From assembly GCA_003194525.1 (NCBI GenBank), contig NBIV01000261.1, positions 49,300 to 113,299 of the forward strand: a DNA stretch of 64,000 bases. Reading direction: 5' to 3'. Origin of the DNA: Gracilariopsis chorda (lineage: Eukaryota > Rhodophyta > Florideophyceae > Gracilariales > Gracilariaceae). The position numbers were made by a program, and so were the translations under genes. Positions 35,110-61,015 of the stretch are shown one piece after another; position 1 is the stretch's first letter, and each line of letters begins with the position of its first letter. Under the pieces are notes generated by a model. That model searched no databases, was not told the DNA's origin, and worked only from the letters and a program-made list of their open reading frames with translations.

Positions 35110-35111
35110 TA

Positions 35112-35205: not shown

Positions 35206-35207
35206 TA

Positions 35208-36557: not shown

Positions 36558-36735
36558 TAAGGGTTAGCGATCACACCGTCTTAATTTGGGAAATGGTTTA
36601 ATTTGAGACGGCATGGCTCTGAAACACGGAATCTCGAATCTCGAATCTCGAAAATTCCATTCGCCTCTCTTTCAACCTCTGCAGGCCTACGCCAGAGTCT
36701 GACCACCCTCCTGCTCCTCACACATTCCAAATTCG

Positions 36736-39029: not shown

Positions 39030-40103
39030 TTCTTGTCTTCAAGGTACAAGTGGCTTGGCTATCATACCGTGACTCTAACCGGTACAGTCGTCCGATGTTC
39101 ACCAAATCGAAGTATGGATCGTCCAACTTTGACACATGTAGTGAAGCATTCTGCAGAGTTCGAGCGTCAGGTCGTGCCACTTTCAATGTAACTATTGCTC
39201 TTGCTTGATGGACATAGCTCTCGCAAAGGTACAGATTGGTCGGTAGAATGCGAGAAGTTTAACATACATGTCATTCCACTTCCTGCCTATACCACACATT
39301 TCCTTCAGCCTTGTGATTCCCATATTGATAAACATTTCAAAGAAGAAGCGAGGTCAGTTCGTTATGTTCTCTTGGAAAGCGGAAAGTTTTCCCATGCCAA
39401 TATGTGTTTCAAAATCAAACTGGCCATTGCCGCCTATCGAACAATTACGCCTAAAGTTGTGAAGAAGAGCATTGTTGACGTTTCGATGTGGCCAGCGGAT
39501 AACATCTTCGTGTAAAGGCTCCGTGAGAAATTGGAAATGTGAGCTGATTCGAAGAGTCGGAAAGGTGAGATGGATGCAGTTGAGGTCAGATCTTCCAATC
39601 GACTGCAAACCAAAGACGAAACGATTTGCCGAAAGATCCGGGACAGATTATCTACTCACGTTAATCCCATTGCCGCAATGACAGATGTAGAGAATATCCT
39701 CCAGAACGACCGCTCAACAAATCGAGTAATATGGGAAGCAGCGCCATTGCGTTTTCCAGTTCATTTCACCCGCAAAAAAGTTGCAATTGATGCTGGACCT
39801 CGAGCTTTTCGACTCACTCAGAGCACGGTTAATGAAACCAAGTATCCGCAAAACTCCACCACCATGGAGAAAAAATGCGATGCTTCACCAGGGAAAATGA
39901 AGGGGAGAGCGAAGCGCTTGTATCTGAAGTTTGTGGACGAGAATCTTCCACCGCTATTTAACAGTGTTCTCGATGACATTTTGCCAATAAATAAGTTAGT
40001 GAGACGTCGACAAGCCAAACGAAAACGTGGACACTTACGGGTTGGGCTATGGGAAGGACTGCGAGTCCCAAGAGCTATGCGCAGATCGCACATGCTTCGA
40101 TAA
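39030..40103 (+). pseudogene. Pogo-like transposase, copy B (5'-deleted, broken)
   Basis: It aligns with the second half of copy A: SRYKWLGYHTV, then LLLLDGHSSRKGTDW with the second catalytic Asp, FLQPCDSHIDKHFKEEARS, a region similar to TDVENILQNDRSTNRVIWEA (copy A has TAVEKILQTNPTSNRVLLE), and a basic tail. The helix-turn-helix and first catalytic Asp are missing. Stops occur at about 39189 and 39513. The amino-acid divergence between copies is large, so they are old relative to each other and not a recent duplication. Confidence 0.7.
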
Positions 40104-40283
40104 GCGGCATAAAGAAGCACTGGGGATGGCAGCAGCGTCGTCTCAAATAAAGCCCTTGAGCTCAGTGCACCGCATTTTGGCTTTACGGGATGGGGTATTT
40201 TGTGTCAAAGCAGGTTAAAAATCACCTTCTTCTGAAGCACGCTGTGTGTCTCAAATTAAGTTCTTCTGACCGGTAATCCTTTA

Positions 40284-40980
40284 CCCAATTTCTCAAATCA
40301 CCAACTGGTTCTTTGGCTCCCCATCCACACACGAGACTCCGTCGATCTTCTAACTCAGATCTTCCAATTATTAGTATCTGTCATTCCTGCAAACACGTCA
40401 ATGCATCAGAAAACCGCGGTTTATATAAAGATAATGCCAAATCTGTGCATCACCGACAAACCTTGTTGCAGTCGTATTGCAAAGCAAAAATCCTATCTTT
40501 AAGGACATAAGAGGCCATCGTTTTGTTGAAAATGTTTTAAAGAGAAGTTCCAATTTGTCTCAAATAAAAGTTGCAACTAGCTAAAACGATTGCGACACTT
40601 AGGGATTTAAGCGATATATATTGCTAAAAGTGACGCTCTCTGGAACAGTAAAAAAAGACAAGAACACTCTCAAAAGATAGTTTTAACACTAATAATAGCG
40701 TTTATTATGGAAGACGGGGTTGTAGGAGCATAGAAAGAAGCATGATAGAATTCAGATACTCGCCAATTTACTGGTGGGGTCCGTTGTTAGTGCTTGACCG
40801 GCCTCTAGTGAACAAAGCATAGAGAGCTCCACTTTTGTAGGCTCTTCATTCTAGGATGTACGCCACCGCCGATCGATCCAGCTCCTCTAACAGTCAATGC
40901 GATATCGCCTTCAATGCGATATCGCCATCCACTCGGCGCTACGTACGACTTGGCCGTTATCGCCAGGAAAAAAGAGTTAA
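40284..40980. other. Spacer between DNA transposon and G1 retroelement
   Basis: About 700 bp. GTCTCAAATAAA recurs at about 40556, recalling the pogo-like subterminal motif. The 5' LTR of the G1 element may lie here. TGGTGGGGTCCG at about 40773 could be its primer-binding site, but a matching 3' LTR was not found, so no LTR is called. Confidence 0.35.
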
Positions 40981-43137
40981 ATGACTTTGTGCGAACTGGC
41001 CCCTTCAACTCGCAGCCAAACTCTACAACCAGAAAACCAATGTAACGTGATTGAGGCATCACAGTCACAAAATTTGCGCGAAGAACTGCAATCTTTAATA
41101 AATACAGTTACTTTGCAGAACACTACGATTGAGAATCTACAATCTCAATTGGTGCTTAGCAGCCAGCTACAATCCCCAGCTAGCTTGAATTCTTCCAAAG
41201 CAGCGCCAATCTCTACGTTTACGGGCAAAATTTCAGACAGGACGACAGAAAAAGTTACCAGTTTTTTCTACTCGGTCAACAAGAATGGCAAGTTATGAAA
41301 CTATTGAGATTAGAAGATTCTGGATGCAGCAGAGTGTCATTTTTAAGATAGACCAGCCTCACGGTTCTTGCGCCTTAAAAATGAAAGTAGGAAGCCATCC
41401 AGTCTGGAGGATTTGGAGAAGGCCATGATTGAAGAATTTGTTCCGGCAAATGAAAGGGTTACTGCTTGAGTAAAGCTCCTGGTATTTCGTTTGAGAGAGA
41501 ATGAGTCTACGGATTTTCCTATTGCATATTTTTGAAGATCTCATAACTTTCTGTAGCACGCAAAGTAACGAAGCATATATTTATTTCTTCAATACCCTTC
41601 CCACAATTTACAAGGGCAAACTTATTGAGAGGTTTTCAACATTGCAGCCGGTCAATCACTTCGGAAATATTTCCATGGAGCCAGCATATATATATATGAG
41701 AACTGTTGAATTGTCTTTCTGGCATGCAGGGGCGTCACAAAACAGCCCTGCAAATGACCATAGCTCGACAAGAGTGCAAGAAATTTCAAAGAATGTCGTA
41801 GCACTACCAGAGACAACGACGCTTTTTCTTGGGGACCTATGAAGCGCGGGGAAGTTGCTCTTTACCGAAGAAATGACAGATGCTTTAGGTGCGGTGAAAA
41901 AGGATCGGGCGATCACAGTCACGCTTGCAGACAAGATTGGACTGAGAGAGAGTGCTTTGATAACTCAAAAAAGAGTTATTCCGCACAGTGGTGCGGTGAA
42001 GGAAGGCAATTTACATTAAGACTTGCCTTACCTTTCTGCATTAAACTATACAGAATGAGACTACTGAATGTACGATTCCAGGCTATCTGGAAATTCAGAG
42101 AAGCAGTTGTGGATTCGTACATGTCACACAACATCATGTCAGTGGATGACGCAAACAGATTGGGTTTAGAACTGAAAAAAGTTTGTTTAATTGATTTCGA
42201 ACTAGGGTGTTCTTCGAAGAATAGATTATTGGGTGAAGCACAGGCCATCTTAAACATAGATCGGTTCATGAGTAAAGAAAGAATCTTGGTCATCAGTATG
42301 AAACAGGAAAGTGGTCTGCCGATTCTTATAATGGGTAGAACCTGGTTGAGAGAGCATAACCTGCAAATCCTTGGCTAACAAATTCGTTCAAAATCAAGCG
42401 CAGTATTTGTACTATAATAACGATAAATTCTTGTAGCAAAGACAGAGAAACGTCGGGAAAGGTGTGTTTTAAACAGATTTCGGTGAAAAGAACGTGAAAA
42501 GAAGTCAAGAAGGGAAATTACGAACTGTTTGCTGTTCGAGTATCTCATATTCAAGAATCAGTGGTATCAGCAGCAAAATACGATTCAGAATTCAGAAAGA
42601 TTTTAAGGGAGTTCGAAGATGTGTTCAAGGAAGAGTTTCCGGATGAGCTGCACCCACCATGCGGGATGGAATGTGAAATTAACCTCATTCTCAGTGCCAA
42701 ACCCTCTGTCTGTCCTGTTATTAGACTCTCACCTCTAGATCTACAAGAACTGAAGCCCTGGCTACAGAAATACTTGAAAAACGGATTTCTAAGTGCATCT
42801 TCTTTTCCCTATGGGCTCCAGTATTTTTCATCCAAAAGAAGAACGGAGATCTCCGAATGGTTTGTGGCTATATAGCATTGAATAAGATCACTATTGCAGA
42901 TGTAATTGCGATACCTTTGAATAATGAGACCATTGATCAAGTGGCGGGATCTAATGCTTGCTCACACATTGACTTAATCTGGGGGTCCCATCAAACGATA
43001 CTTTAACAAAAGAACTGTCATAAGACGGCCAGCCGCATTTGATATGGATCATTTTAATGGAAAGGGCTTTTTTTGGCTTGACCAACGCACTGGCAGCGTT
43101 TTCTTGTCTACTGGTACATCTTCTTAGAGAGTTGAAT
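40981..43137 (+). mobile_element. G1: degenerate Ty3/gypsy chromovirus, 5' half (gag to mid-RT)
   Basis: Successive broken frames in one orientation. A gag-like coiled region occupies 40981-41298. A CCHC-like zinc knuckle starts RCFRCGEKGSGDH at about 41876. An aspartic-protease-like region ends ILIMGRTWLREHNLQ at about 42320-42375. The start of reverse transcriptase covers 42561-43137, with ELKPWLQKYLKNGFL, SKRRTEISEWF and FGLTNALAAFSCLL. The sequence then stops at an LTR of another element. The remaining part of this RT is found at 60484 on the opposite strand, sharing the 5-bp duplication TGAAT. Many stops and frameshifts make it non-functional. Confidence 0.8.
43133..43137 (+). repeat. 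Target-site duplication TGAAT (left)
   Basis: Five bases of G1 sequence immediately before LTR1. The matching copy lies at 60480-60484 (ATTCA, the reverse complement) next to LTR3, not next to LTR2. Confidence 0.85.
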
Positions 43138-43663
43138 TGTAGGAGAATGACCATTGTGCAGATGCAGTGGTGAAATAACCTTGGGGCTGGGCTGGCAGAG
43201 GTCAGAACATTGCTGGCCGAAATATCCCATGTGGCCAAGTTGGGTGCCTATGCAGGAGATACGAGGGGACATTGCAAGTGCCAAGGCACTGTGGCCATAG
43301 GTTTTATTATGTAGCTAATTTTATTTAATTTGTTAGGATAGTGTCCGGAGGTCAGAACGCCTCGCCAGCCATATAGGTTGGCGAGAGTGCCGCCGATCTC
43401 TGAAGCGTAAAGACAAGCACCCTAACCGTCTTCTTGCCGCCATATGCAGCCAGTAGGACTCCAAAGCCCTCCAAGCCATCGCTACCATTCTCCCGATCTG
43501 TAGGGACTTGAGATAGTGCCCGCCCATTGCGCCTCGCTGCCAGTTGGTGCCCGCCTCACTAATAGACCCAGTAGATTGTCACCCCAGTGGTTGGCTCTCT
43601 GCCGCTACTAACCCCTAGTAGACTACTACCCCAGTTGACCAAAGGACTTAGTATTCTTCTACA
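43138..43663 (+). repeat. LTR1 (5' LTR)
   Basis: 526 bp, starting TGTAGGAGAATGACC and ending TATTCTTCTACA. The ends are inverted (TGTAG...CTACA), as in retroviral-type LTRs. It has the same length as LTR2 and LTR3, with scattered substitutions. Confidence 0.92.
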
Positions 43664-43665
43664 AC

Positions 43666-43678
43666 TGGTCTCCCGACC
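43666..43678 (+). other. Putative primer-binding site
   Basis: TGGTCTCCCGACC begins two bases after LTR1. The initial TGG pairs with a tRNA CCA end, and the rest would pair with a tRNA 3' strand reading GGTCGGGAGACCA. It is not the common initiator-Met site (TGGTATCAGAGC). Which tRNA is used cannot be settled here. Confidence 0.55.
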
Positions 43679-43732
43679 TAGAAGCCTACAGGAACAGCCG
43701 TTTGGACCTTACGTAAAGAAGCTTACGCATAG

Positions 43733-45972
43733 GACTTCTACCATTGGACTATTAGTCGACGCAACTGGCTCGAAAGCAACACCGACCGTATCGGTAACCA
43801 ACAACCCAACCCAAGGAACGAAGACCAACAAGGAACCCCGGGTGCAGTCGCACCTCCTGCAGTTGCCGTAACCCCATTGGCCGCCCAAGCGGACAATAAT
43901 ATTGACCGTAGGAGTACCTGCAGCCGCTCCAATGGACGTGTTATAGACCCTGTGGACAATCCTGAAAGGATAACCAGAGATTCGCAATTGGTCGCTCGCC
44001 TCCGCGAGAGGATGCATCAGCTCAATCTTCGGCAAGGCCCAAGGAATGATGCAGAACAGCCTCAGGACTTAGCCGCTACCGTAACCACCCCCCGTATGGT
44101 GGATGATGTCGCCGCTCTCCTATGGCCGCAACTCCGCTCTTGGTGCGAAAACCAAGTGGAGCAGTTCCTTAGGGACCAACTGCATAGAATATTACGGGAG
44201 CGCCTCTCCTCTTTGGCAGACCAACTGGTTCTTCAGGTTGTGCAATCAGATGTCCTCGTGGAATCCATTGCCACGACCATCCAAGGAGAAATCACCCGCC
44301 AGGCAGGCACATTTCATAGCCCTCGGGCTGTTTCTCAAAGTGTACCATTGGATGTCCATCGGTCAACACACACCGGACCTCATGGAGCAGCTATAGAAGT
44401 AGCCCCTCGCCTGGGTACAGGACAGGAAGGCCCATTGGGTTATATACCGCCTGGAGAAGAGAGACTCTAGAGGCAAGGAGGCCGTGTGGGAGATAAGACC
44501 AATAAACAACACGACGTTCGGTACGCCAAAGAGTACCTCGAGGACGATGAAGAGCTCGGCCAAAAGGACCTCGTAGATACCGAGACCCATAGGAAGAAGA
44601 GACGCAGCCCAAGGCGTAAGTCAAGGACGAACCATCGGAAGAGGCACCACTCGGATTCGAGCGATGACTATTCGGACTCGTCGGACTCTTCCGATACCGG
44701 TACGGATGAGGCGGATGTTCGGCGCCTCAAACCATTGGTCACGACTAATGAGCTTTTCCAGAAGGTCTTAGACGTGAAAACGTACCGTTTGATGGATCGG
44801 TGCACGCGGTATACCTCTTTAGTCGCCAAGAAGATTGCCAGGTGGGCGAGGAGAATGCAACTGACCATCCCGTACAAGTTTTCTGGGAAGGATCCCATTA
44901 CAGTCCCTAGGTTGTTGAGCTCGTTCCAGGTGGCCTGTGACCAGAATGGTATCCATGAAGGAGTGGCACTTTATTGCTTCCAGTTTTTCTAAGTGGACAA
45001 GCGAAGGACCAAGTGGTTGCCAAGACCTCCGGCTCGGCCAACCCCATTGATGCCCGAGATCAGGAGCTCCTAAGGACCTATCCAGAGATTGTTCATTACC
45101 TGTTGGAAACGTATGCGACCGATGACAACATAGTGGACGCCTATCAGGACGTAATTGGATACCACCAGAGTTCCAGCATGTCCGAAACGGACTACGCCGA
45201 CCAACTTTGGACTACAGCCCACAGGTGCGGGAATGTGTTCTTCGAGGGTAGGCTGAAGCGACATTCTATCGCGGGATTGCCCCCTGCGATACGGACTCAT
45301 GTCCGAAACCACCACACTGCCCATCCGGACTTGACGCTGCGTCAACTGGTGAAGTATGCCGAAGGATACGGCAAGACCTATAGGACTTCCCGTCGAACGG
45401 GTGACGCGGATACTCGGGGTCGCGCAAGACCCCTGACCAGAGGAGTGAAGGTCCACATGGTAGAGTCCCCGTCGGAGTCGGACTCGGCCTTTGGACATTC
45501 AGACACCGCAGGTTCTCTTGCGGTGAGCTTCTCCCCAGCTCCGTCAGGAGCACCATCGGCCTTTTCGTCAGGAACGACCACCCCATCGGCCCCGGCGACA
45601 CCCCGTTATTCTCCGATTGGCCCCAGGAAGGACGTCATAACGAAGTCCAATCAGGCCTGCTATATCTGTCTTTCCACGGCCCGGCCGTGTGACTGCATAA
45701 ATTATATGCCTGAGGACATCCGCAAGGGAATTATGGCGCGAAGGGAGGAGAACTACCAGGTGCGCCGAGCCGAGGGTTACTTCCGTAGGACCTTCCCTCC
45801 GAGGACCACTGAAGTGCCAGGGAGCTCAAAGTATGTGACTCCCCTGACTACACCGGTGAAGCAATCTGAGGTCAAAATGGTTGAAGACCCAAGGGATAGC
45901 GTCGAATACCTGGACGGACAAGGCGATCTTGCGGTGCCCACGCCGCAGGAAAACGACCAGAGGGACGCATAG
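43733..45972 (+). pseudogene. Chromovirus gag (broken)
   Basis: One frame is open from 43733, without a clear ATG near the start, to a TAG at 44468-44470, and continues in the same frame to 44992. A frameshift at about 44975-44985 leads into the frame 44974-45972. Features: an N-terminal Arg/Gln-rich helical region, a basic/Ser-rich stretch (HRKKRRSPRRKSRTNHRKRH) followed by acidic DSSD repeats, a capsid-like helical region with FLSGQAKDQVV and YATDDNIVDAYQ, and a small cysteine cluster (CYICLSTARPCDC) in place of a CCHC knuckle. Pol lies in the other frame and overlaps the end, so expression would need a ribosomal frameshift. No canonical slippery heptamer was seen. Confidence 0.72.
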
Positions 45973-48900
45973 AGGCGTATCGTCCCTCTTATAACTGCCG
46001 CCTCAAACCATCGGACTCGCAGACCACGGTAGCTGAGAAGAGAAAGAAAGCAGAGGACGAAATGACAGGGTTCTCGAGTCGGGTATATGCTGTGGACCAA
46101 TGGGAAGACCTGGAGGACGCTGTTTGTGTCCTGAGGAAGGATAACGACAAGGTACAGGGAACCTTGGGACTACATGCCAATACCACAAGGACGTTTACGG
46201 CCGTATTTTATACTGGAGCAGGCCCCAATCTGGTACATCCGAAGGTCTTACCATTGGGCTGGGAAAGGATGATACAGGAAAAGAAGTCACCGAAGGTAAC
46301 GGACGCATCACGTCTGCCGATGTACATTCGCGGAATACTTCCGCTTTACGTCCAATTGGGTCACCTGAAGGTTAAGACTTGGTTTCTTGTATGTCCGAAC
46401 CTGGGGCCGGAAGGGATCCTAGGGACGAGCTTTATTGATAGATATGTAAAGGCAATCTGTCCAGGCCAAAAGAGGGTTGCTTTCTATCGAGGACGACCAT
46501 TGGCGATTGTCGGCTCACGCCCTGGACCCGAGGCTGCTCCAGCTGAATTCAAGTTTCCCACGAGGACCGTGTCCAACAAGGCCAGATTGGCAAAAGCGAT
46601 AGTCATACCGCCTATGACCCAGGTAGCCGCTGCAGCGGTTTGCGAGTCCTCAGGTCTGGTTTTTGTGCAAAACCATCCCAAGTTGGTAACGAAACACCTT
46701 TCCCTCATGGCCAATGGAGTAATGAATGTGGTACCCAACCGGCCCTTTGCGGTTACGATGAGCAACGTCCGTGACAAGCCTACAAGGCTACCCAAGGGTG
46801 CAGTGGTGGGGGTATCTATGCCTGCTCCAGTGGCCATTATGGAGATTGATGCGGAGAAGTTGCTTCCTGGGGGTCAACCACCGGCCAATTCGGAAAACGA
46901 CGTCAACCTTGGCGATGAATTTGAACCACATAGGAAACAAGTCATTGATCTCCTCAAGGACTTTGCTAGCATGTGAAGTGGAAAGCTGGGCGAGATGGAT
47001 GCCACAAGGCATCGAATTGACCTTAAGGACGGGGCCACGCCCCAATATCAGCACCCATATCGGACTGGCCTAAAAGGACGAAAGGTGGTAGCCAAGGAGG
47101 TTGAGAAAATGAAGTCCGCTGGGGTCATTGAGCGTGCACCATCCACTGAGGCCGAATGGGCTAGCCCTTTTGTCCTAGTGGCCAAGAAGGACGGGACCGT
47201 ACGGTTTTGTATTGATTACCGCAAACTAAATGCGTTGACCAAGAGGGATACTTATCCTATCCCCCGTATGGATGACTGTGTAGATTCCCTTGCGGACCCG
47301 CAAATTTTCACCACGTTGGATGCCAATTGTGGGTATTGGCAGGTTCCCATGGACGAAAAGGTGAAGTCGCTAACTACCTTCACGACCCACGAGGGATTAT
47401 TTCGATTTACACGGATGACGTTCGGTCTTATGAATGCGCCAGCTACTTTCCAGAGGGCCATGGACATCATTTTGTCTAGGGTCAAACGGAAATTCGCCTT
47501 GGTCACCATAGATGATGTGATCATCTTTTCCAGGTCCATTAGGGAACACTTCGAACATGTGAAGGCAGTCCTTAGGTTACTCCAGCAGGCTGATGTCACA
47601 CTGAAAATGAAGAAGTGTTTCTTCTTCCAGCCCTCCGTGGACTACCTTGGCCTTGTGGTCCTGCCAGTTAAACTCCAAGTGGCCCAAGGTACAACAAAGG
47701 CCATACGGGAAGCAAGAGCCCCTAGGACCCATACGGAATTGCGCTCCTTCCTTGGCCTTTGTAATGTTTACCGTAGGTTTGTCGCAGGGTTCGTGAAAAT
47801 TGCAGCACCTCTCAATGAGATGGTGAAGAAAGGTACCCTTTCAGAATTTGACGACCTCACGGACGAGCATTATAAGGCCTAGCAGAACCTCAAGGACCAT
47901 TTGGTTAATCCGCCGGTCTTGGCGCTACCCAAGGCCAATAAACCGTATATCCTAGATGCGGACGCATCTGCGACCCAAGTGGGCTGTGCCCTTCTACAAG
48001 AGCAGGAGTCCCCTAAGAATTATCGCCCAGTTGGCTACTGGAGTAGGTCCCTGACCAAGGCCAAAAGGAACTATGGCACCACGGAAAAGGAATGTTTGGC
48101 CATCGTGTGGTCAGCGCTCCATCTTCGGCCTTATTTTGAAGGAACTCGTTTTACCATTAGGACAGATCACCACTGCCTCCGCCGGCTACTGAACATGACG
48201 GACGCATCCTCCCGTCTGGCCCGATGGAGATTGCGCCTGGCCGAACTCGATTACAAAGTGACCTATAGGCCAGGGCTGAAACATCAGGCCGCAGATGCGC
48301 TGTCACGCATCCTGACCGATGGTACACACCAAACTCCCCTGGAAGATGAGATTCCCACCATCTGGGACGGACCACAGTACACTCATGACGAGGGAGAGGA
48401 ACCACCGGTGGCTGAGGTGAGAATGGCCGAATGGACGGACGGACACGGCGCAGCGATCTTATGCGCCGTGGACTGGGAAGACGCACCGTTGGATATCCAT
48501 ATGGCCCAGTCGGAAATCGCGGATCTTACGCCAATACCCCTCGAGAAATTCCTTCAGGCCCAGAAAATGGAAGAATACTGCGCCCAGATAGGAGAGAAAG
48601 TAGGGACCCCTAGGTCTCTGTTTGATTATGACCGCCGAGGCAAATTATGTCGCAGGTCACCATTGGACGAGGCGATACAGCGGGTAGTGCCAAAGGCCTT
48701 ACGGGCACGCCTTCTTTACCTCGCACACTATCCGAGGTCGGCTGGCCATCCTGGAGGGGCTAAGATGTATCAGACCCTATGGAGATACTTTTACTGGCCT
48801 CTGATGGCCAATGACATAATGGAGACCGCAAGGACTTGTGCAGCATGCGCAAAACTCCGAGGAACAAGAGCGGTAAATCAAGGGAAACTGAATTAATTCC

Positions 48901-50303
48901 CAGCGGCCGGGCTTTTGGAGTTCACTGCTATGGATACCATAGGGCCATTTCCGAGGTCGACCCACGGCAACTGATTTATATTGGTGATTACCGATCGGTT
49001 TCCCAAGTTGACCCGAGCAATTCCGCTCAAATTAACAACCGCCACGGACGTCGCCATGGCTTTCCTGGTCCATTGGATTTATCCCTATGGACTGCTGCTC
49101 TATCTCCTTACGGACAATGGCTCTCAGTTTATCTCCAAATTCTTTGAGCATGTGTGCTCGGCCTTAGGTCTAAAACATCTCCTCACCACCGCGTACCATC
49201 CTCAGACCAATGGACAAGCCGAAAGGTTTAACCGAACCCTGGCCAAGAGGCTAATTCACTACGTTTACGAGCACCAATTGGACTGGGATGACTATGTCCA
49301 GCCGCTCGTCTATGCATATAATAATCAAGGGCATAAGTCCACGGGGACAACTCCTTTTGACCTCACCCTCTTACGGGCCTCGGCGCCGTACATGGTTGAC
49401 TTAAAGGACTTAGGAGCACCTCAGGACATAACGGAGGACATGACTCCCGCCCAGGCCCAACGGTATTCGTGGAAGCGAGTATATTCTATCTTGAAGGCCA
49501 CACAGACCACGTTGGACAGAGCGCAAGCGTGCTATGAGGCCGATCTCGATCAGTCCGTTTGGTTTAGACCGCAAGTGGCCGTGGGAGATTACGTCCGCTT
49601 GGACAGACCGCCGAAGGAAAAGCCCGAGGACGAGGACATCACCAAGAAGCTGTTGCTAAAGTGCACTGGGCCCTTCAAGGTACTGAAGTCGCTTGTGCAA
49701 ACGGTTACTATCGACCGAGATGGGCTCCAGGACACAGTGACAATGGACCGAGTCTCTCTGGCGCCAAGCCCACCTTCAACTGAACCATTGGACTGGCGTG
49801 CTTTCCCTTCGTCCCAAACCCCACACTCCATCCCTACGCAACCACTGGTCAATGACCCTACAGGCCCTCAGAAACTGCAGGTCTCCACGGATCCAGAAGG
49901 CCCTTCCCTTGATGGCTACGGTCCCGTGGACGAAATGATACTTCTTGAAGAAGTACCCGACCCTATGGAAACCCCCGACGCTGTTCCTTCGGACGCTGAC
50001 GGGTACGGTCCCCTCGACCAGATGGACCTACCGGAGAACGCCGGAATGAACGACCAATGGGAGTATGTCGTCGACCTCATCGTCTCGGCTGGGCTCACCG
50101 ACGATGGCGAAGTGCGGTACAAAGTCCATTGGTATGTCTATGAGCCCAAGGTCGATACTTGGCTTCCGAGGTCAAACATCCCGGATACTTCTGTGGCCCG
50201 CTATTGGTCAAAAACAGGCCACACGGAGCGTGAACTAAAGGAAGGGGGTATCCCTGGCCACAAATTTGCGCCAGGACGGGCCCAATCCGCCTCCACCCAA
50301 TAG
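45960..50303 (+). pseudogene. Chromovirus pol: PR-RT-RNase H-INT-chromodomain (four in-frame stops)
   Basis: A single uninterrupted reading phase runs for 4.3 kb except for stops at 46974, 47880, 48894 and 48972. Protease: FYTGAGPNLVHP, with Tyr (46209-46211) where the family has catalytic Asp. RT (46995-47650): FCIDYRKLNALTKRDTYPIP, FGLMNAPATFQRAM and TIDDVIIFS, with Thr in place of the Tyr of YxDD. RNase H (47900-48310): DADAS, TEKECLAIVW, RTDHH and AADALS, all four acidic sites present. Integrase (48680-49450): HHCC zinc finger with H-x7-H and CAAC; DDE core MDTIG, LTDNGSQF and GQAERFNRT. Chromodomain (about 50060-50225): WEYVVDLIVSAG, YKVHWYVYEP and DTWLPRSNI. Known role: copying and histone-guided integration. 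Confidence 0.92.
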
Positions 50304-50658
50304 AAACACTGCTTTTGGCTACAGCGCCCACATAAACGCCTCCCACGCCGCCCCACTCGCTGGCTGCGTGCCAGTTCTTCCGAAGGTTTACTGCGACGAT
50401 GACCAACTTGGACGCTACATAACTCCGACGTACCTGGGTTATCAAGGCCGAAAACCTCAGGAACGAAGCGCGGGCGGCTGACCTATAAGGAAAGTGCACC
50501 AAAACCCCATGGACTTGTTTCAAAACCGAGCTAGTGGTATTCAAGGGTGGAGATGAAGACCTATGGAGCGCCACAGAGAAGACGCACACCTTGACGCTAG
50601 AAGGGCCAAAAGGGGAACCATAGTGTTTACTGAGGACTACTAGCCCTAAGGACGACCA
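50304..50658. other. Spacer between pol stop and 3' end of the antisense frame
   Basis: 355 bp inside the element. It could carry the antisense gene's 3' UTR. No frame was supported. Confidence 0.5.
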
Positions 50659-52870
50659 CTAGGACGACGCAGCCGGTTGAGAAGGGGATCCCGTGCGGGC
50701 ACGCTTGCGAGCCGGACTCCGGGCGGAAGAGGATGAGGCACCACCAGCGGACTCCATGCCCGAAAGGTTAAGACCGAAGCAGCTACCAAGGTCTGTCGCG
50801 ACATGCTCAGACAACACCTTAGAGTTCTCCTCCAGGATGTTCGCTAAGGCCTCTTCGACCTCTTGGCTACGCTGAACCAGCGAATGGTACCGCGAATCCC
50901 AGCGAGCCCAGGATTGGGCGGAAGGAAGAGCTTCTACGATACCAGTGGGTTCAAGGATACCAACAGACGTGCATAACTTCCTCAGGTCATCGAAGGCCAT
51001 TGTAATGACCTCTGGAATGGCCGGCACGGGAGGCGGAGGAAGGACCATAGGGGCGGAACCCGTCATGGATGTAGGAGGTGGGGAAGCCAAGGGACCGATG
51101 GACGCCTCTGGGGGTTCTACCACGGCAACTTCATGTGCCGGCACAAAAGACGGCGCTACGGATGGGGCCGGTACAGGAACTACCACCTGCTCCCGTACTG
51201 GAGGACGAAGACAATCTTCGTGATACCCAATGGCCTGAGGGTAGTAATCCGGCACGGACTGACGTGGCTCGTTCACAGCAGCCAGCAATGGTTTGGCCTG
51301 GTAGAGGTTCCCGTCATCATTGCCTAAAGGATGTCGCGGGATCGGGAAGAAGGTGTCAGTGTCATAATAGTACCAAAGGAACCCGAGGGTCTGCCCCCAG
51401 TCGACCCGGAGGACATAATCCAATAGGGCTTCGCCCTCTTCACTCTCGTTCTCCGTACCCCGGACAATGTTCTGCACTCCCAACTCATGGATGAGCCAGA
51501 TCAAGGGCCGCGGAAGAGGCAAGAGATGGCCTTCAGGACTGGGAAGAACCTGCTCGTTCCAGATACGGCAGTCGGCCTCCCGGACGTTAGCTTGGACCCC
51601 AGAGCGGGTGGTATCCAGAAAGGCCATCAAACAGAACACGGCCCATTCGGCAAAAAGAACCTGCCAGGTCAGCCAGGGGAGACGTTTATTGAAGTCTCCC
51701 TGGAGCTGATACGTGCGGTAGGCCACCACGGACAGAGTAGGGACCAAATAGGAGATCGGGATCGAGCCAGATAGCGGCCTCCGGTCCGGAGCTAAGTGAC
51801 GATAGCATGAGATATAGAGAAGACCTGCGGGACGGAGGCATATCGTGGAATTCCACTTGGTGCCAACAGAAGAAGTACTTGAGGTTGGTTCGAATAAGAC
51901 CATCGGGTTCGATCATATCCTTCCAGTAGTTCCGGTTCGATAACCAGTACAAACGGTCGTATGGAGGTCTGAAGAAGACTAACCCCAGGAGGCTATGACC
52001 AAGGGGAGGAAAGGGGGCCTTCGGGTCGCCGCGCCTCGAATACAAGTCCTCCAGGAGCTTGTTTAGTCTCCATTGGTAATCAGACTCCTCGCCGCAGTGG
52101 ACGAAGGGCAAATCCGGTGGGACCAGAGTGCGGCAACTTGCGACCGAACGGGCATCAGTAGGAAGGTGGAGCCAGCGGTTGTACCAGGAGTCCTCTTGGG
52201 AGTTCTTCTTTGAACGGGCATAGTTGGGGATCGCAGCGAACCGCCGGGGGTCCAAGTATTGATCAGCATACCGCACGAACTCGGCGACCAAACTGGGTAG
52301 ACGGGTACTTCTCAAGGCCATAGGATTCCGACCCAAAGTGTGCTCGTACTTATCCCCAGGGTACACATATGCGCTGCTGGGGATCAGAGCCATCTTGGTC
52401 GAGTCTAGATTTATTGGCACCCGAGGGATACGCTCGAAGCTGTCATGGTCCAAGAGGTAGCCATGGGAGCCCCTATATGCCCCCGAGGGCATGGCGTAGA
52501 CACGATCGACAAGCCGACACAGCGGATACGGTGTCAGGGGAGACCAACGGTCAGGAATCTGAAAGGCCAAGGGAATGCACCACGATCTACCGAAGGGGCG
52601 GGCATGGTGGATGCACCAAGACGGTATGCGAAAAAGAGAGCGACCAGAGGGACGAGGTAATCTAGAGGGAAGTATGGGCGTCCGCGCCAGGGGTTGGTGA
52701 AATGCAGGAGCACGAGGAGCGCCCCGCAGTTGAGACTCACTAGTTAATGAGGCCCCCTCGTAGGCGACCAATGGCATGGTAGCGGCCACGTGCCACTTGC
52801 CGAAAAAGCAGCCAAATGGACGCAAACCGGTACTGCCGCCATACCTGCTGTAAAAGGGCCGACCAGCCAT
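50659..52870 (-). pseudogene. Long antisense ORF of the chromovirus (one frameshift)
   Basis: On the strand opposite to gag-pol, frames 52870-51686 and 51903-50659 overlap. Each half reads as protein-like up to a crossover near 51720-51735, where a single-base difference in a GGTGG run would join them into ~736 residues. The N-terminal half is Arg/Pro/Trp/Tyr-rich and globular-looking. Residues further on include WLTWQVLFAEWAVFCLMAFL, a hydrophobic helical segment, a Pro/Val-rich linker, a coiled-coil-like segment (SQEVEEALANILEENSKVL) and a basic C-terminus, ARSPARKRARTGS, resembling a nuclear localisation signal. The position between integrase and the polypurine tract matches where some plant Ty3/gypsy elements carry antisense ORFs. 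I recognise no family. Its function is unknown. Confidence 0.6.
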
Positions 52871-53006
52871 CTCAACCAGGAGGCGAGAGACCTAATTGGG
52901 AGAGAGGACGCGAGAACAACAATCCCATTGGGCGGGAGGAAAGAATGCCAGCGGAAGAAAAGGATGGCTCACCGACGGGGAAGTGTCCGACGGGACGTCG
53001 GATCTT

Positions 53007-53017
53007 AAGGGGGGAGG
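53007..53017 (+). other. Polypurine tract
   Basis: AAGGGGGGAGG ends two bases before LTR2, the standard site for plus-strand priming. It supports the LTR2 boundary. Confidence 0.8.
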
Positions 53018-53019
53018 TC

Positions 53020-53545
53020 TCTAGTAGAATGACCATTGGGCAGATGCAGTGGTGAAGTAACCATGGGGCTGGGCTGACAGAGGTCAGAACATTGCTGGCC
53101 GAAATATTCCACGTGGCCAAGCTGAGTGCCTATGCAGGAGATACGAGGGGACAGTGCAAGTGTCAAGGCACTGTCGCCATACGTTTTATTATGTAGCTAG
53201 TTTTATTTAATTTGTTAGGATAGTGTCCAGAGGTCAGAGCGCCTCGCCAGCCATATAGATTGGCTCGAGTGCCGCCGATCTCTGAAGCGTAAAGACAAGC
53301 ACCCTCACCGTCTTCTTGCCGCCATATGCAGCCAGTAGGACTCCAAAGGCCGCCAAGCCATCGCTACCATTCCCTCGACCTGTAGGGACTTGAGATAGCG
53401 CCCGCCCAATGCGCCTCGCTGCCAGTTGGTGCTCGCCTCACTAATAAACCCAGTGGATTGTCACCCCAGTGGTTGGCTCTCTGCCGCTACTAACCCTTAG
53501 TAGACTACTACCCCAGTTGACCAAAGGACGTAGTATTGTACTACA
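53020..53545 (+). repeat. LTR2 (3' LTR)
   Basis: 526 bp, aligning without gaps of note to LTR1. It begins TCTAGTAGAATGACC (first G of TGTAG mutated) and ends GTACTACA. At many of the inspected differences it agrees with LTR3 rather than LTR1. Confidence 0.92.
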
Positions 53546-53550
53546 ATTTG
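53546..53550 (+). repeat. Target-site duplication ATTTG next to LTR2
   Basis: The reverse complement of CAAAT at 61011-61015, next to the outer end of LTR3. It does not match the TGAAT before LTR1. Key evidence for the inversion. Confidence 0.85.
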
Positions 53551-56419
53551 TCTTGGAGGTTACGTTTTTTTTTGTTTATCCTTCTCATTTTTAAATGGCT
53601 TACAGCTATAAGGACACTTTTTTAGCCTATTCTATCGCCTCATTTGGGCTCCTTGCGTCATTATCTCGTGATAGCGTCCACATGTTCTTTAAGAGAGCGC
53701 TTCCCGAAATTGCAAATCACAAATTGGGTACTGTAAAAATTGTGATAAAGACACAATTGTTTGCGATTTGGGCACGCAAAAATTCCTCAGTAGCTTCGAT
53801 GGTCAACCTCTTTGGAACCACATGAACGGCTGGAAGAAAAAATTTTAAAGCGATGAGTTGGCGCGTTTTCGCCCTCTCTGGTCTGCGTTATGCTCAACTA
53901 CTATCAATAAGATCTACATCCTAGTTTCCATCACATGGGCTGGCATTTGCATCTCGCCCCGCATTTTGCTTGCTTATCAAGACCAAGATCTTATTCTCGG
54001 TCTAAAACACGTGCAATTGCACTTAAAATTTATTCTCAGAAGTGCACGGTTGTTTAAGGAAAGATTTACTCTTCGCGATTGATTAGGAGGACTTGATTTT
54101 GTGTGTGGTTCTAAGCAAGTTGTAACTATGCGCCTTTTTGTCACCTAAACCCCTCAACATTCTTCCTAAGAAGATTGGCTCCAACATTGATGCTAACCGA
54201 GTGTCTTTCTGCTTCGCTGATATGTGTTAATCCCTCCAACTCTCGTGACGACGTCTTTCTTCAACGTTGTAAACTGAACTCACATTTTTGGTTCAAGAAC
54301 ATAGTTTAAGAATACAAGCGCAGACATTAGGCATCAGCAACTCTGCGGCATGGACACTTGAGTTTAAGTATTAAAATTGAAGAATTTGTGTAAGGAGAAT
54401 TACCAAATGGAACACGGAAATGATGAAAAATAATCTTGCAGGACGGAAGAAGTCTTACTCTTTCAACCAAAAGAAGGTTCAATTACGAACGCGCCCCGCA
54501 ATTCATCAAATGTAGATAGCAGCAGAGAGCCGTAGCGAATCAACCAAGCGTGGCAATTCGTGTCTAGCGATGATCATGCAGCAGCCTGTCCACGCACAAC
54601 CTGCAGTATATCTCCAGATGACTCAGATGGTACAAACCACCAGCAAGAGGCTGAAGTTCAGCGCTGCTCATCCGGATTGCCACCAATGGTTTCAAGCAAT
54701 AAAAGTAAAGAAAATAGAAAACTGACTTCATCGTAAGTACCAGCTGGGACACAAGGGACTAGATTGTTGCAAATTGAAACTAACAACGTACTGGATTTGA
54801 TCGAAGAAAATATGTTGCTTGGTATAAAGAAGTGGGAGATGGTGTCTAGACTTCACAATACAATACTTCTATCACAGAGTAGTAATGCATATTTCTTCAG
54901 ACGAATGTTTTCGTTAATATGTCGTACGAAGTTTCTAACTGCAAATCGAGCCATTATTCATCATGATATGCAGCCTTAACAGCTTTGAGAGCAAATGACG
55001 CTAAGACCCAACATTAGTGATAGTGCAAAATCAGAAGAGAGATTTTCTTAGATTGCCAAAGAAAGCGGTATGGAGAAATACGAAGTAGAAGCAGTTGAAG
55101 CCAGAAGGCGGATCATCGAAGAGAGGCAGTAATGCAAGCAGTTCTTTTTGTAAGCGAAAACCTGCGGTGCAAAACCACGTGAGCAAAGATGAATACGAAA
55201 TGTGTCCGAATCCTTTCCATTGTAAAGGGTACACTCGGCAATGGAGTACTTTGATAAGATCGACACTAGCCGAGCGTAACTCCGGGCGATCGCTTCTCCA
55301 CTTGCGAAAGAAGCGAAAGGCATTAGAGGGTAACGGTTTCCACCAACCGTAAGTTCTGAAAGAGATAAAAGGTATGGCAGAGGCCGTACACGAACAGTAT
55401 TGACCCTGACGTAAAGCGAAAAAAGAATTGAGAAAAGACGCCAAGCCTTCGGCTCTGGGACGATAACCACCTGTAACACAGGACAGAGAAGAAACCGTAA
55501 AGAGGACAACAGAAAAAAAAAACCGTAAATAACACCATTCAAGCGGGCTTACTTTGCAGAGAATCAGGAAAGGTAGTGAGGCGGGAAGCAACACGGGTGC
55601 TCCCAGCAATTGGGTTATAGTCTTGTGTTGGCGAGTTTGAATAGAGCCGAACCTTTCTCTTCCACTCCTTGACGATGGCCGAGAGGGAATCGCTTAAGTG
55701 GGATCACTTCTGGGCACTATTCTAGGAAATTTACTAAAAATCAAACAACTATTACGGGACCCATGCTCGGGCAAGACCAACAGGTGTGTGTGACGTCACC
55801 CCTCAGAAAATGATTCGTGTAAGTGGTCGCTCACCTGAAACGTATCTGACTACGTCCACGCTCCCAATGGGACGGACGATCACACACGTACGACGTCTTA
55901 TTCCGGTAGCCAACGGTATCTGGGCTATCCCTCACGTCGCACTTAAAGCCTCTGGCTCATGCGTTTGAGTCACATCCAAATTGAGTCCTTCCCTAGCGGC
56001 CGAGGGTCCATTGCATAAAAGAATGCATTCTCATTCACCACAGCCACTGGTTTGGAAAAGAGTGAATTATCTACATAATAGGGCAGATAGAGGTTAATCT
56101 ATTCTAGAAATCATGAGGGCTCCAATTATGCAAGACGGTGCGTGGCCAAACGCAGAATATCAGAAAATCGTTGGAAATAGGGAAACAGAGAAACAAAGGG
56201 AGCAAAAAAGAGGAAATACCACGCCGATCAATTAGAGGAAGGTTGCAACCATAGAGAAGAGAAGAGAGTGCAAAGTTAAAAAGAGAAAAGAAGATCAGAA
56301 GAGAAAAATCGTAGCAATGTTCGAATGATGCAAATAATGATGACGTCATTTCTGGGAAAGCAGGAAAAGCTCGATATTAATGGTTATGAAAATGTGACAA
56401 TTGATCACACTCTTCATTA

Positions 56420-57038
56420 CTAGTAGAGAACAAATTGTCTAGCCTTAATAATTAAGCAAGGCACATAAGCGCTTATATTTTCGTTGAATAGTACAACTTT
56501 GGACCACAAATTGTGTAACCGAACAACAGATTGCAGCATTAGTTCTTCCACCCCGGGTCCCATACAAAAAGAAATTTTGTAACCTTGAAAAAGGTGCTTT
56601 AAACGTATAAATACCTCATTTGTATGCCTAAAGTGCAGATCTTGCCTTACCAAAGCGATGTATGTCCTGTAGTGTACCATCACTGTTAGCGACGCAGTCT
56701 TGCGAGGACTTTATCAAATACGAAAAATTTATCTTGCAGAACACAGAATCTACCATGACACGTGCGCCAATCCTTCTCAAAAGATTGTCCAGCTTGTCAC
56801 TAATGCCATCGTATTTTGATATGATCGAATTAAGCATAGTACTAGGCACATTTAGCAAAAATTCTATAGCGAAACTACTTGCTGCAAACACCAAAACACT
56901 TTCCACATAGTGCTCATGCTTTGAACCCATGTAGAACATGCTTTTTATAACAAATTCAACACCCTGTTCCAAATACAGATTCAATCCATTAACAACACAA
57001 TGTAGATCATACAGAGCAGAATTTTTAGCCTCAAACAC
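56420..57038 (-). other. Protein-like minus-strand frames, unidentified
   Basis: Frame 57038-56628 (136 codons; FEAKNSALYDLHCVVNGLNL, FAASSFAIEFLLNVPSTMLN) overlaps frame 56683-56420 (87 codons; IFIRLKHLF-type helical sequence) in another phase. Composition is helix-rich and not low-complexity, unlike random AT-rich DNA. It could be a decayed gene or transposon part, but no family is recognised. Confidence 0.25.
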
Positions 57039-58329
57039 AATTTAGTACTCGCTAACTTCTTCTTTTGATGGTATAAGAATCGTAGCAAAATGATCACGAC
57101 GAAAAACCTTTAACAAAACCCGCTTTGTAAATCGCCAAAAAAAGTGAACATACCAAACTGGTGATACCAAAACGCATGCATAGCAGAAAATCTGCATTTC
57201 TCGTGCTATTCCATGTCAATAACAGCCCTAGGCATTGTGCGGCATTCATGATAAAATCAAGATTTTGGTCTCAAACTTTGATTCACCGTTCATAGAATAG
57301 GACGTATATCTGTTGTATAATGATTCAAATTTGTGTAGCAGGTATGGGAGTTTACAGTGATGAAAACCGATAAGTGTGAGAAGAGATTGATTACATCCAC
57401 TTCCAAAAAGAGTTACAAAAACAGACATATGAGGAAGCTGCAACGCACGTTTTGTTATGATTCTATAACATTTGTGACTTGCTTGAAGATCAATTCAATG
57501 TTTGTATTAGTAGTAAAATTTTCTTTGTCTTTCAGTTAATTATAGCATCATGAACGATACTGAAATCACTCTGAGGTTAAGGATAGAAAGTGAATAGAGT
57601 CAACTTGAAAGAGTAAAATTTACGATACCGGAGGCACCAGCAGAAGCTTCAGGCGGTTTTCGGGAAAGCATTATACTATGCTGGTGCATAGTGCTGATAC
57701 CAAGCCTAATAGTACGATGTTCAGCAATGATGTCGTGCCGAATTTAGTATGACAAGCTCTGCTTTCAACGTCTCGTTTTTGCCTGACAGTTTGACGTAAA
57801 AGTTGAACGCTACTAGTATTAATTTGGGATTCCTGGAAGCTACCAGTAAACATGGTATTTTTTTGGTTATGAAATGTTTAATACCGAAATAAATGTACTT
57901 CAGTTATCTTGATTTGTTTTGTTTTATGAGTTTCGCTGCTAAAGCAGCTCAAATTTTGCCATATGGAGCAAGTACATGCACAATGGCGATCTGCATCTCT
58001 TGGAAAGCCCAGCCAACCTTTGGAAATTAGTTTCGTTTTGTAGAGTCAAACCAATCTATATCTGTCATATTGCCGCTATTGTCGTCAAAAATCGCTATGT
58101 AAGAGTATTGCACTCTTACTAAACTTTGACGCACTAGAATCAATGTTGGCTACTTCTGAATTTACTTCGAACAGTCTAAAATGTTTTCCTCTTATACTAT
58201 GTAAGGCGTCTATTCTTGAATATGTGAATCTGAACTCCCACACTCACCACCAGCTGTACAAATTCACGTCCACTGAGCCCTTGGTAACGCTTCTAATACA
58301 TTCACCCTTTCTTCCAAATTGACGTACTC

Positions 58330-60484
58330 GACAAGTTCTCAAGTTTCTTAATGAGTTCTGTACAGTTCCCCTTTTATTTCTCATCAATATTGCTTCTTCT
58401 TTAGTATCCCCTCAAACTGTACAAGATACTGCTTCTTTCGAATTTTTCTTCTCGTCTCAAGACCCGCAATCACTTCGTACTCAACTGTGTCTGCTGTATC
58501 AATCACAGTAGTCAGCGACTATTTATCATCCTTTCGATTAAACCGTCGTAATTGGGACACATGAAAAGCATTGTGTGCTTTGTTCCTGGGAGAAGATAGC
58601 TCAATCTTATAAGTTGTCGGGCCCCATCACTCGCTTAACCCTAAACGGTACCATATATTCCATTTGCCACTTTTTGCCATTCCTGACTTACGTGCTGTAC
58701 TTATGCGATGTAACGTCAACAGGACCAAATCTCCAACGTTAAGCTCTGCACGCTTATGCTTTTTGTTGACATAGAATTTTTGTCCAGCAATGGCTTCAGC
58801 CAGGTTGTCTTTTGCTGCAGTACAAAATGTTTGTCCACTCTCTGAATAGTCGAATGCTGCTGGACAGAATGTGATTTCTATAACTTTCTGGAATGCTCTG
58901 TCTCAGGTATTCGACCAATGTCCACTTCATATGGCGATAAAACGGTGATCTTGTTCATTGAAGAGTTGTAGTGGAATTCTAACTCACTGAACATATTGTC
59001 CTGTTTTAAAGGATTCTTTTGAAAAGTGCTTCTGATCATTGTAGAGAATGTCCTGCTCATCTTTTCAGACTGGCCATCTCTTTTTGGATGTCCTTTTGAG
59101 GCCATGTTTAGTTCCACATTCAAGATCCAGGTGGTGTCGTTAAAGTAGTGCAACGTGAACAATTTGTCTCTGTCAAAAATGATAGTCTTCGGCATCCCAT
59201 GTTTCGAAAACACTAGGCCGAAAAGTACTTGCATTACTTCCATGGAAGTGATCGTCTTCTTTGCCGGGATGAAAATGGCCCTCTTAGAAAGCTTCTCCGC
59301 AACAACAAGTACTGCGTCATGTTTTGTGTCTGACAAAGTAAATTCAGATATAAAATCCATAGAGACGACATTCCGACAGGACTACGGTACTGCATGTGGT
59401 TGTAACTTCCCATCTTGCATTGTTCTTGCCCCTTTGTTGAACTGAAACTCCTTACAAACCCTAATGAGCTCCCGGATATCTGCGAGCGTTCGCTTCCAGT
59501 AAATTAAACCATCTTTGATGGAATAATTTCTAATGTACATTGCAGTCTTCCTGCTGGGTGGTTCCTTTCTGTCTTGAAGTACAGCTACTATGTTCTGAAT
59601 CTACGATTCCTTTTTTTATCTCTCGCGAATCACAACGTGTAGTTCCTTTTCGCGTAAACGGAGGGCTTTGCATGTCGGATGGGAATCGTACAGTCTACTT
59701 AACGCATCTGCAGCTCCATTTCTTGAGCCCTTTAGATGTTACACTTGGTATGAGTAACACTGTAGCTCGTCAAGCCGTCTCATCTGTCTTCCTGACAGTT
59801 TTGACTTAGTCTGCAAGTACTTCATAGGCTCATGATCAGTGCGAATCATGAATAAGCGATCTTTGAGATACACTGACCATTCTCGTAACGCGATCATAAC
59901 TGCTATCAGTTCCTGGTCTCCTGTATCCCACCTTGTCTCAGCTTCAGTGAGGCGATGCGATAGGTAGGCCATTGGTTGATTTTTTTTTGTTCAAAGGGTG
60001 CCTCTATGACGTACTTTGACCCATCAGTCGTCACTACGAACACTTCGTCAGACGTTGGATGACGTAGCACTGGCGCTGTAGTTAATCTTCTCTTCAATTC
60101 TTCAGATGCACATTTCTGTTCATCCTTACATTGAGAGATATTTGTGCGAGGTAGGTCCGGAATTGGTTGTGCAACTTGAACAGAGTCTACTTTTGTAGAA
60201 GCTTGTGAGACATATGAACTTTTCTAAATCCTTCACTGACGTTTGGATAGGCCATTTCTGTACAGCTTTTACAAGTCTCTGCTGTGTATGAACTTCTTCT
60301 GTGTTGATTTTGAAGCCTAGGTATTCAACCTGTGTGGTCCCAAAATTACTCTTGCTTGATCTGATGTACAGCTTGTGTTTCCTCAAAAGTTGCAAAAGCT
60401 TTTGCAAGTGACTTCTGTGCTCCTCTGTGCTCTTACTGTAAATGACAATATCATTTATATAGAGAACCATGCATTCTCCATTCA
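58330..60484 (-). mobile_element. G1: degenerate Ty3/gypsy chromovirus, 3' half (mid-RT to chromodomain), inverted
   Basis: Reading from 60484 downwards: RT with NGECMVLYINDIVIYSKS (YIND where YxDD is expected) and HKLYIRSSKSNFG; the RT/RNase H connection (KRRLTTAPVLRHPTSDEVF); RNase H with YLSHRLTEAETRWDTGDQEL and MIRTDHEPMK; integrase core with MDFISEF, IIFDRDKLF and KGHPKRDGQSEKMSRTF; and a final chromodomain with TVEYEVIAG and QYLVQFEGI at about 58390-58480. Stops and frameshifts are frequent. The first codons continue the RT that ends at 43137, in frame across TGAAT, which shows it is the missing half of the same element rather than a separate copy. Confidence 0.85.
60480..60484 (-). repeat. 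Target-site duplication TGAAT (right, inverted)
   Basis: Plus-strand ATTCA, which reads TGAAT in the orientation of LTR3 and G1, matching 43133-43137. Confidence 0.85.
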
Positions 60485-61010
60485 TGTAGTAGAATACTAC
60501 GTATTTTGGCCAACTGGGGTAGTAGTCTACTAGGGGTTAGTAGCGGCAGAGAGCCAACCACTGGGGTGACAATCCACTGGGTCTATTAGAGAGGCGGGCA
60601 CCAACTGGCAGCGAGGCGCAATGGGCGCGCGCTATCTCAAGTCCCTACAGGTCGGGGGAATGGTAGCGATGGCTTGGAGGCCTTTTGAGTCCTACTGGCT
60701 GCATATGGCGGCAAGAAGACGGTGAGGGTGCTTGTCTTTACGCTTCAGAGATCGGTGGCACTCTAGCCAACCTATATGGCTGGCGAGGCGCTCTGACCTC
60801 CGGACACTATCCTAACCAATTAAATAAAAATAGCTTCATAATAAAACGTATGGCGACAGTGCCTTGGCACTTGCACTGTCCCCTCGTATCTCCTGCATAG
60901 GCACCCAGCTTGGCCACGTGGAATATTTCGGTCAGCAATGTTCTGACCTCTACCAGCCCAGCCCCATGGTTACTTCACCACTGCTTCTGCCCAATGGTCA
61001 TTCTACTACA
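60485..61010 (-). repeat. LTR3 (solo LTR, inverted)
   Basis: 526 bp in reverse orientation. In its own direction it starts TGTAGTAGAATGACC and ends GTATTCTACTACA, with intact inverted ends. No internal sequence follows on either side, so structurally it is a solo LTR. One flank is G1 (TGAAT) and the other is CAAAT. Confidence 0.92.
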
Positions 61011-61015
61011 CAAAT
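61011..61015 (+). repeat. Target-site duplication CAAAT next to LTR3
   Basis: Matches ATTTG (reverse complement) at 53546-53550 beyond LTR2. The two would flank the solo LTR before the inversion. Confidence 0.85.

What the first reader, a model, noticed from the sequence alone, without database searches (positions are those of the whole stretch)
43133..61015. LTR-LTR recombination inverted a 6.9-kb segment and split one retroelement onto two strands
Three 526-bp LTRs of one family carry swapped target-site duplications. LTR1 is preceded by TGAAT, and LTR3 (inverted) is followed by TGAAT. LTR2 is followed by ATTTG, and the far side of LTR3 is CAAAT (its complement). Inverting 53546-60484 back puts TGAAT on both sides of the full element and CAAAT on both sides of the solo LTR. 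It also brings the two halves of the G1 reverse transcriptase together in frame across a single TGAAT. All three predictions hold at base resolution. The event is therefore ectopic recombination between the 3' LTR and an inverted solo LTR.
Basis: seen in the sequence. Interest (0 to 1): 0.85.

Follow-up and report, generated by a model that had tools for sequence, protein, structure and literature searches.

The report
LTR-mediated inversion in a red alga
A stretch of seaweed DNA was probably flipped when two oppositely oriented copies of the same mobile-element end recombined; the process is well known, but this copy keeps clear footprints, and they suggest the flipped piece is longer than first thought.

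Summary
Three 526-bp LTRs of one Ty3/gypsy-type family carry exchanged 5-bp target-site duplications (TSDs): TGAAT/LTR1(+), LTR2(+)/ATTTG, ATTCA/LTR3(-)/CAAAT. Paralogues support both ancestral junctions: in 19 of 29 other loci of the older element G1 the two flanks abut exactly with a single target site, and one paralogue on contig C21 joins the other two flanks apart from about 30 nt. Inversion by recombination between opposite LTRs is well supported.

TSDs alone fit two histories: (i) full element at TGAAT plus solo LTR at CAAAT, a 6.9-kb inversion through LTR2 and LTR3; (ii) solo LTR at TGAAT plus full element at CAAAT, a ~17-kb inversion through LTR1 and LTR3. LTR2 and LTR3 share four states found in none of 39 other copies, the most of 861 pairs. 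LTR1 and LTR2 share none and are more diverged (6.65%) than seven same-insertion pairs. History (ii) fits without large conversion; (i) needs near-complete conversion of one LTR. Crossover position is poorly resolved. No reads were available; contig C81 is the same locus, not an allele. The mechanism is ordinary.

The parts
43133..43137 (+). TGAAT, target-site duplication copy left of LTR1
   Evidence: read
43138..43663 (+). LTR1, 526 bp, TGTAG...CTACA; by the favoured reading a solo LTR over most of its length, recombined near its 3' end
   Evidence: no uniquely shared state with LTR2
43664..53019 (+). internal region of the Ty3/gypsy-type element: RT, RNase H and H2C2 pieces above Pfam cut-offs; integrase core and chromodomain below them
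   Evidence: Pfam; frames
53020..53545 (+). LTR2, 526 bp, starts TC; 3' LTR of the full element
53546..53550 (+). ATTTG, complement of the CAAAT duplication, right of LTR2
53546..60484 (-). 6.9-kb segment inverted relative to both flanks under either history
   Evidence: paralogue contiguity at both junctions
60480..60484 (-). ATTCA, complement of TGAAT, left of LTR3
60485..61010 (-). LTR3, 526 bp, inverted; by the favoured reading mostly the 5' LTR of the full element
   Evidence: 4 states shared only with LTR2
61011..61015 (+). CAAAT, target-site duplication copy right of LTR3
43491..60657 (.). favoured inverted segment, about 16.9-17.2 kb; the crossover lies between LTR positions 354 and 501, that is 43491-43638 in LTR1 and 60510-60657 in LTR3 (inferred, weak resolution)
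   Evidence: site pattern; segment likelihoods, not significant
41764..43137 (+). left half of the older element G1 (broken frames, reverse-transcriptase motifs by eye only)
   Evidence: its last 900 bases match 38 other places, 29 of them fetched and compared
58630..60484 (-). right half of G1: RVT_1 C-terminal part and RNase H above Pfam cut-offs, integrase core below its cut-off
   Evidence: RVT_1 profile 148-205 of 205, RT_RNaseH, weak rve

Best explanation
Before the event, a solo LTR in + orientation sat inside an old, already broken Ty3/gypsy-type element (G1), flanked by TGAAT. A full-length element of the same LTR family sat downstream in - orientation, flanked by CAAAT. A crossover between the solo LTR and the far (5') LTR of that element, somewhere in LTR positions 354-501, inverted about 17 kb. 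The inversion carried the element body next to the left half of G1, put the right half of G1 on the other strand, and exchanged one copy of each target-site duplication. Shown: exchanged TSDs, opposite orientation, and contiguity of both flank pairs in paralogues. Inferred: which two LTRs recombined, the crossover position, and that homologous recombination rather than assembly made the join.
For: Exchanged TSDs. Ancestral junction 1: the G1 flanks abut exactly with one target site in 19 of 29 other loci (29 fetched of 38 other matches). In 9 more the offset is within 9 nt of that but extrapolated across unaligned sequence; 1 has no right-half match; 0 of 29 show the element. Ancestral junction 2: contig C21 carries both flanks on one strand, E = 6.7e-42 for the outer flank starting exactly at 61011 and 2.3e-11 for the inner, against two loci only. 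Which LTRs: LTR2 and LTR3 share 6T, 156C, 163C, 354C, present in 0 of 39 other copies, the highest count of 861 pairs; the only two other pairs with 3 lie on C12 and C68 and look like the outer LTRs of single elements. The tree groups LTR2 and LTR3 at 99/89, and holding LTR1+LTR2 together costs 8.5 lnL, p-AU 0.044. LTR2-LTR3 divergence of 5.13% lies inside the 4.57-6.27% range of 7 pairs taken as same-insertion; LTR1-LTR2 at 6.65% lies outside it. In 401-526 the preference turns to LTR1+LTR2: 0.8 lnL below best, against 9.8 for either other pairing, as a crossover there predicts.
Against: The crossover position rests on one polymorphic site (501, A in 15 of 39 others) and a 507-508 cluster in LTR3. 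Segment AU tests are not significant (p 0.13-0.35), and raw differences in 401-526 do not separate the pairs (7, 7 and 8). Site 247 pairs LTR1 with LTR3 and fits neither simple history. Two of 7 pairs taken as same-insertion share no unique state, so LTR1-LTR2 sharing none is not decisive; unrelated pairs can be as close as 4.56%. The C12 and C68 pairs were noticed through their shared states and then checked by flanks; C68's outer flanks agree at only 3 of 5 bases. All three LTRs share 418C (0 of 39 others), so solo LTR and element would have to come from one subfamily. No reads; LTR1's left junction lies in one contig only.
Confidence: 0.6

Rival explanations
1. One reading: full element at TGAAT, solo LTR at CAAAT, crossover between the 3' LTR (LTR2) and the solo LTR (LTR3), inverting 6.9 kb, accompanied or followed by gene conversion that made LTR2 and LTR3 alike over most of their length.
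For: Same TSDs and same ancestral junctions. All three LTRs share 418C, seen in 0 of 39 others, natural if all derive from one insertion plus conversion. Conversion over hundreds of bp commonly accompanies crossovers (general knowledge, no call). Two of 7 pairs taken as same-insertion also share no unique state.
Against: A clean crossover predicts LTR1+LTR2 kinship on the 5' side and LTR1+LTR3 on the 3' side; searches show nearly the opposite. Conversion would have to cover at least positions 6-354 and to be old, since LTR2 and LTR3 have diverged by 5.1%.
Confidence: 0.22
2. Assembly artefact: the assembler passed through the wrong LTR and flipped the segment, and no such order exists in the organism.
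For: Contig C936 looks like a chimera through an element of this family: its left flank is the C53 locus and its right end is this locus, with unlike outer pentamers. C261 ends and C81 begins near this locus.
Against: C261 and C81 overlap over 11.5 kb with the same order and identical LTR2 and LTR3. LTRs of 526 bp differing by 5-7% should be separable by long reads (read type of this assembly unknown). A random chimera would not exchange TSDs between two sites 17 kb apart.
Confidence: 0.1
3. Two solo LTRs in opposite orientation inverted the segment first, and an element copy was later added at the left LTR by recombination with its cDNA; or two full elements were present and one lost its body later.
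For: Same end structure; recombination of element cDNA with resident LTRs is known for yeast Ty elements (recalled, no call).
Against: More steps; does not predict the special kinship of LTR2 and LTR3.
Confidence: 0.06

Closest known systems
Galileo-mediated inversion 2z3 of Drosophila buzzatii (PMC2775673; passages seen)
   Same: Two copies in opposite orientation at the breakpoints, exchanged target-site duplications, single target sites in uninverted chromosomes, chimeric copies used to argue for ectopic recombination.
   Different: Galileo is a DNA transposon with 7-bp duplications and a natural chromosomal inversion with uninverted chromosomes at hand; here LTRs, 5-bp duplications, about 7 or 17 kb, and only paralogues as the uninverted state.
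Ty-recombination-mediated inversions (mentioned in a passage of PMC2775673)
   Same: LTR-retrotransposon repeats recombining ectopically.
   Different: Natural event in a red alga, nested in an older element, no strain comparison.
LTR-LTR recombination producing solo LTRs (recalled)
   Same: Same homology and presumably the same recombination machinery.
   Different: Direct repeats give deletion; inverted repeats give inversion. Seven of 39 other copies here have identical 5-bp flanks of their own, as solo LTRs do.

Membership tests
TE-mediated inversion by ectopic recombination | Two copies of one family in opposite orientation at the two breakpoints | tested here: met
   LTR1 and LTR2 (+) against LTR3 (-)
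TE-mediated inversion by ectopic recombination | Exchanged target-site duplications | tested here: met
   TGAAT and CAAAT pairs; 5-bp duplications are the family's habit
TE-mediated inversion by ectopic recombination | Single target site in uninverted sequence | tested here: met
   Paralogues only: 19 of 29 G1 loci exact; one C21 paralogue for the second junction, with about 30 nt of indel
TE-mediated inversion by ectopic recombination | Breakpoint copies chimeric | tested here: inconclusive
   Pattern of shared sites suggests a switch between 354 and 501 in LTR1 and LTR3, but few sites are informative
TE-mediated inversion by ectopic recombination | Uninverted order present in a relative or allele | not testable with these tools
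   No relatives of this genome are held (note); C81 is the same locus
Ty3/gypsy LTR retrotransposon | RT and RNase H before integrase, 5-bp TSD, TG..CA LTR ends | tested here: met
   RVT_1, RT_RNaseH and Integrase_H2C2 above cut-off in that order, rve core just below; TSDs; LTR1 and LTR3 end TG..CA, LTR2 begins TC
Ty3/gypsy LTR retrotransposon | Chromodomain (chromovirus branch) | tested here: inconclusive
   PF00385 at 23.3 bits, below the curated cut-off of 25.1

The most novel reading that the evidence does not exclude
The inversion is still polymorphic or recurrently flipping in this seaweed, and coexisting orders are why contigs C261, C81 and C936 all end or begin within about 3 kb of the LTR2-LTR3 interval.
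Probability: 0.08. Interest if true: 0.45.

Novelty: new member of a known kind. Interest (0 to 1): 0.27.

Why it matters
It is a clean example of LTR-driven rearrangement in a red-algal genome. It also shows that exchanged TSDs alone do not say which LTRs recombined when a full element and a solo LTR are involved: two histories with inversions of 7 and 17 kb give the same pentamers, and LTR kinship is needed to separate them. I saw no sign that it alters a host gene; what it splits is an already broken retroelement.

Tried and rejected
C81 first looked like a second haplotype carrying the same order; it is an overlapping contig end of the same locus, because C261 ends exactly at window 64000 and the differences are two substitutions and otherwise indels. 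I do not count it as an allele.

C936 first looked like the uninverted allele because it shares LTR2 and 53546-55022; its left flank is the C53 locus and its element is 87-96% like this one by 500-base blocks, so I read it as a mosaic.

A search for G1's own LTRs in inverted orientation, between 34001-43137 and the inverted segment, gave one chance-level 32-nt match (E 0.19); one search gave none of 40 nt or more.

Position 418 (C in all three LTRs) was first taken as a conversion tract, then dropped as a marker because it may simply be a subfamily state.

Rows left out of the LTR comparison before counting: L049 (0.76% from L048), the C81 copies (same locus), both C936 LTRs and the C53 LTR (mosaic contig and its source), and a partial 79% match on C31. 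The 39 other copies kept come from the 40 scored in each of three searches out of 326, 347 and 354 first-look candidates, so 'unique' means not in 39 others, not in the whole genome.

Several G1 loci look like near copies of one another (for example L017/L018, L033/L034, L042-L044), so the 19 of 29 are not all independent.

Literature: searches (4 of 4 papers listed; 10 of 10; 8 of 17; 15 of 55; 15 of 47; 12 of 33) were read as search listings only; only passages of PMC2775673 were read. The listings I saw named no LTR-mediated inversion with exchanged duplications in a red alga, which does not show that none is in print.

Full report
What is there. The window is contig C261:49300-113299 of a 91.3-Mb, 1081-contig genome. 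The best named relatives of two of its proteins are from Gracilariaceae: a reverse transcriptase 67% like one of Agarophyton chilense (120 of 2992 hits listed) and a host methyltransferase 63% like Gracilaria domingensis NDUFAF7, with an unnamed 99% match above it. So it is probably a gracilarialean red alga; the species is not identified. Between 43138 and 61010 lie three 526-bp LTRs, two in + orientation around a 9.36-kb internal region and one in - orientation 6.9 kb further on. The internal region has RVT_1, RNase H and integrase H2C2 above Pfam's cut-offs in Ty3/gypsy order, and an integrase core and chromodomain below them.

The exchanged duplications. TGAAT precedes LTR1 and, on its own strand, follows LTR3; ATTTG follows LTR2 and precedes LTR3. 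The family's ordinary insertions carry 5-bp duplications. Of 39 other LTRs, seven have identical flanks of their own and two differ by one base. Of seven same-strand pairs taken as the two ends of one element, three have identical outer flanks, one matches over the four bases seen, two differ by one base and one by two. So the mismatch within, and the match between, the two insertions here is a real signature.

Ancestral junctions. If the inner segment was inverted, 43137 should have been continuous with 60484 read backwards, with one TGAAT. Of 29 other loci matching the left flank (29 fetched of 38 other matches), 19 have the right flank at exactly the predicted offset. Nine have it within 9 nt by extrapolation, one has no right-flank match, and none shows the element; some of these loci are near copies of one another. 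The G1 reading frames on the two sides put TGAAT in the same phase. The right piece matches RVT_1 positions 148-205 of 205; the left pieces alone reach no relevant Pfam family at E up to 1 and already lie in three frames. For the second junction, contig C21 carries both flanks on one strand, the outer one starting exactly at the CAAAT, the inner one ending 28 nt short, with about 30 nt of length difference. This is one paralogue at 64-68% identity, so weaker than junction 1.

Two histories, one set of pentamers. A full element at TGAAT plus a solo LTR at CAAAT, with crossover LTR2-LTR3, gives this structure. So does a solo LTR at TGAAT plus a full element in - orientation at CAAAT, with crossover between the solo LTR and the element's far LTR. 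In the second case the inverted piece is about 17 kb and includes the element body. This is reasoning from the order of parts, not a tool result.

LTR kinship. Aligning the three LTRs with 39 other copies, LTR2 and LTR3 share four states seen in no other copy (positions 6, 156, 163, 354), more than any other of the 861 pairs. The only other pairs with three are on C12 and C68 and look like the outer LTRs of single elements: C12's outer flanks match over the four bases seen, C68's at three of five. LTR1 and LTR2 share none; two of the seven pairs taken as same-insertion (C57, C180) also share none, so this half of the argument is soft. Divergences are 5.13% for LTR2-LTR3, 6.65% for LTR1-LTR2 and 6.27% for LTR1-LTR3, against 4.57-6.27% for those seven pairs; 851 other pairs have a median of 7.79%, a 5th percentile of 6.08% and a minimum of 4.56%. 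The tree supports LTR2+LTR3 at 99/89 and the three together at 97/74. Holding LTR1+LTR2 together gives p-AU 0.044, LTR1+LTR3 0.062. By segment, 1-400 supports LTR2+LTR3 at 98/92; 401-526 prefers LTR1+LTR2 by about 9 lnL over the alternatives, but no segment AU test is significant and raw counts there are 7, 7 and 8. Site 247 disagrees with both simple histories.

Assembly caveats. C261 ends at window base 64000, and C81 begins at the equivalent of 52480 and continues; the 11.5-kb overlap differs by two substitutions and otherwise indels. This supports the order from LTR2 through LTR3 in a second contig but is not a second allele, and the two contigs may share reads. LTR1's left junction is in one contig. 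C936 suggests that the assembly contains a chimera through this family.

Known or new. [quoted passage not shown] This locus meets the first two and, in paralogues, the single-target-site test; chimerism is inconclusive. It is a new example of a known process. I rate it well documented but ordinary.

Noticed in passing
window 50095-52891 (-): Antisense open frames of 187, 417 and 401 codons between integrase and 3' LTR of the element; no Pfam match, but the 417-codon frame has two homologues in Agarophyton chilense, 37% over 75% and 52% over 34% of the query (7994 candidates scored). Possibly a conserved antisense gene of this element lineage.
   Followed up: partly
L045 and L047 (contig C936): Apparently chimeric contig: left flank matches the C53 locus at 100% (rounded), right end matches this locus from within LTR2 on; unlike outer pentamers.
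   Followed up: partly
contig C261 end and L009 (C81 start): Unmerged 11.5-kb overlap of one locus.
   Followed up: yes
contig C12:243311-264037 (L057, L068): Two LTRs of this family 20 kb apart with matching outer flank (4 of 4 bases seen) and three uniquely shared states: probably one element with something nested inside.
   Followed up: no
window 25184-26254 (+): Open frame with a Hint module, PF01079, 59 bits, in a red-algal-like genome.
   Followed up: no
window 28938-30053 (-): 372-codon frame with repeated CKSKGC motifs and no Pfam match at E up to 0.001.
   Followed up: no
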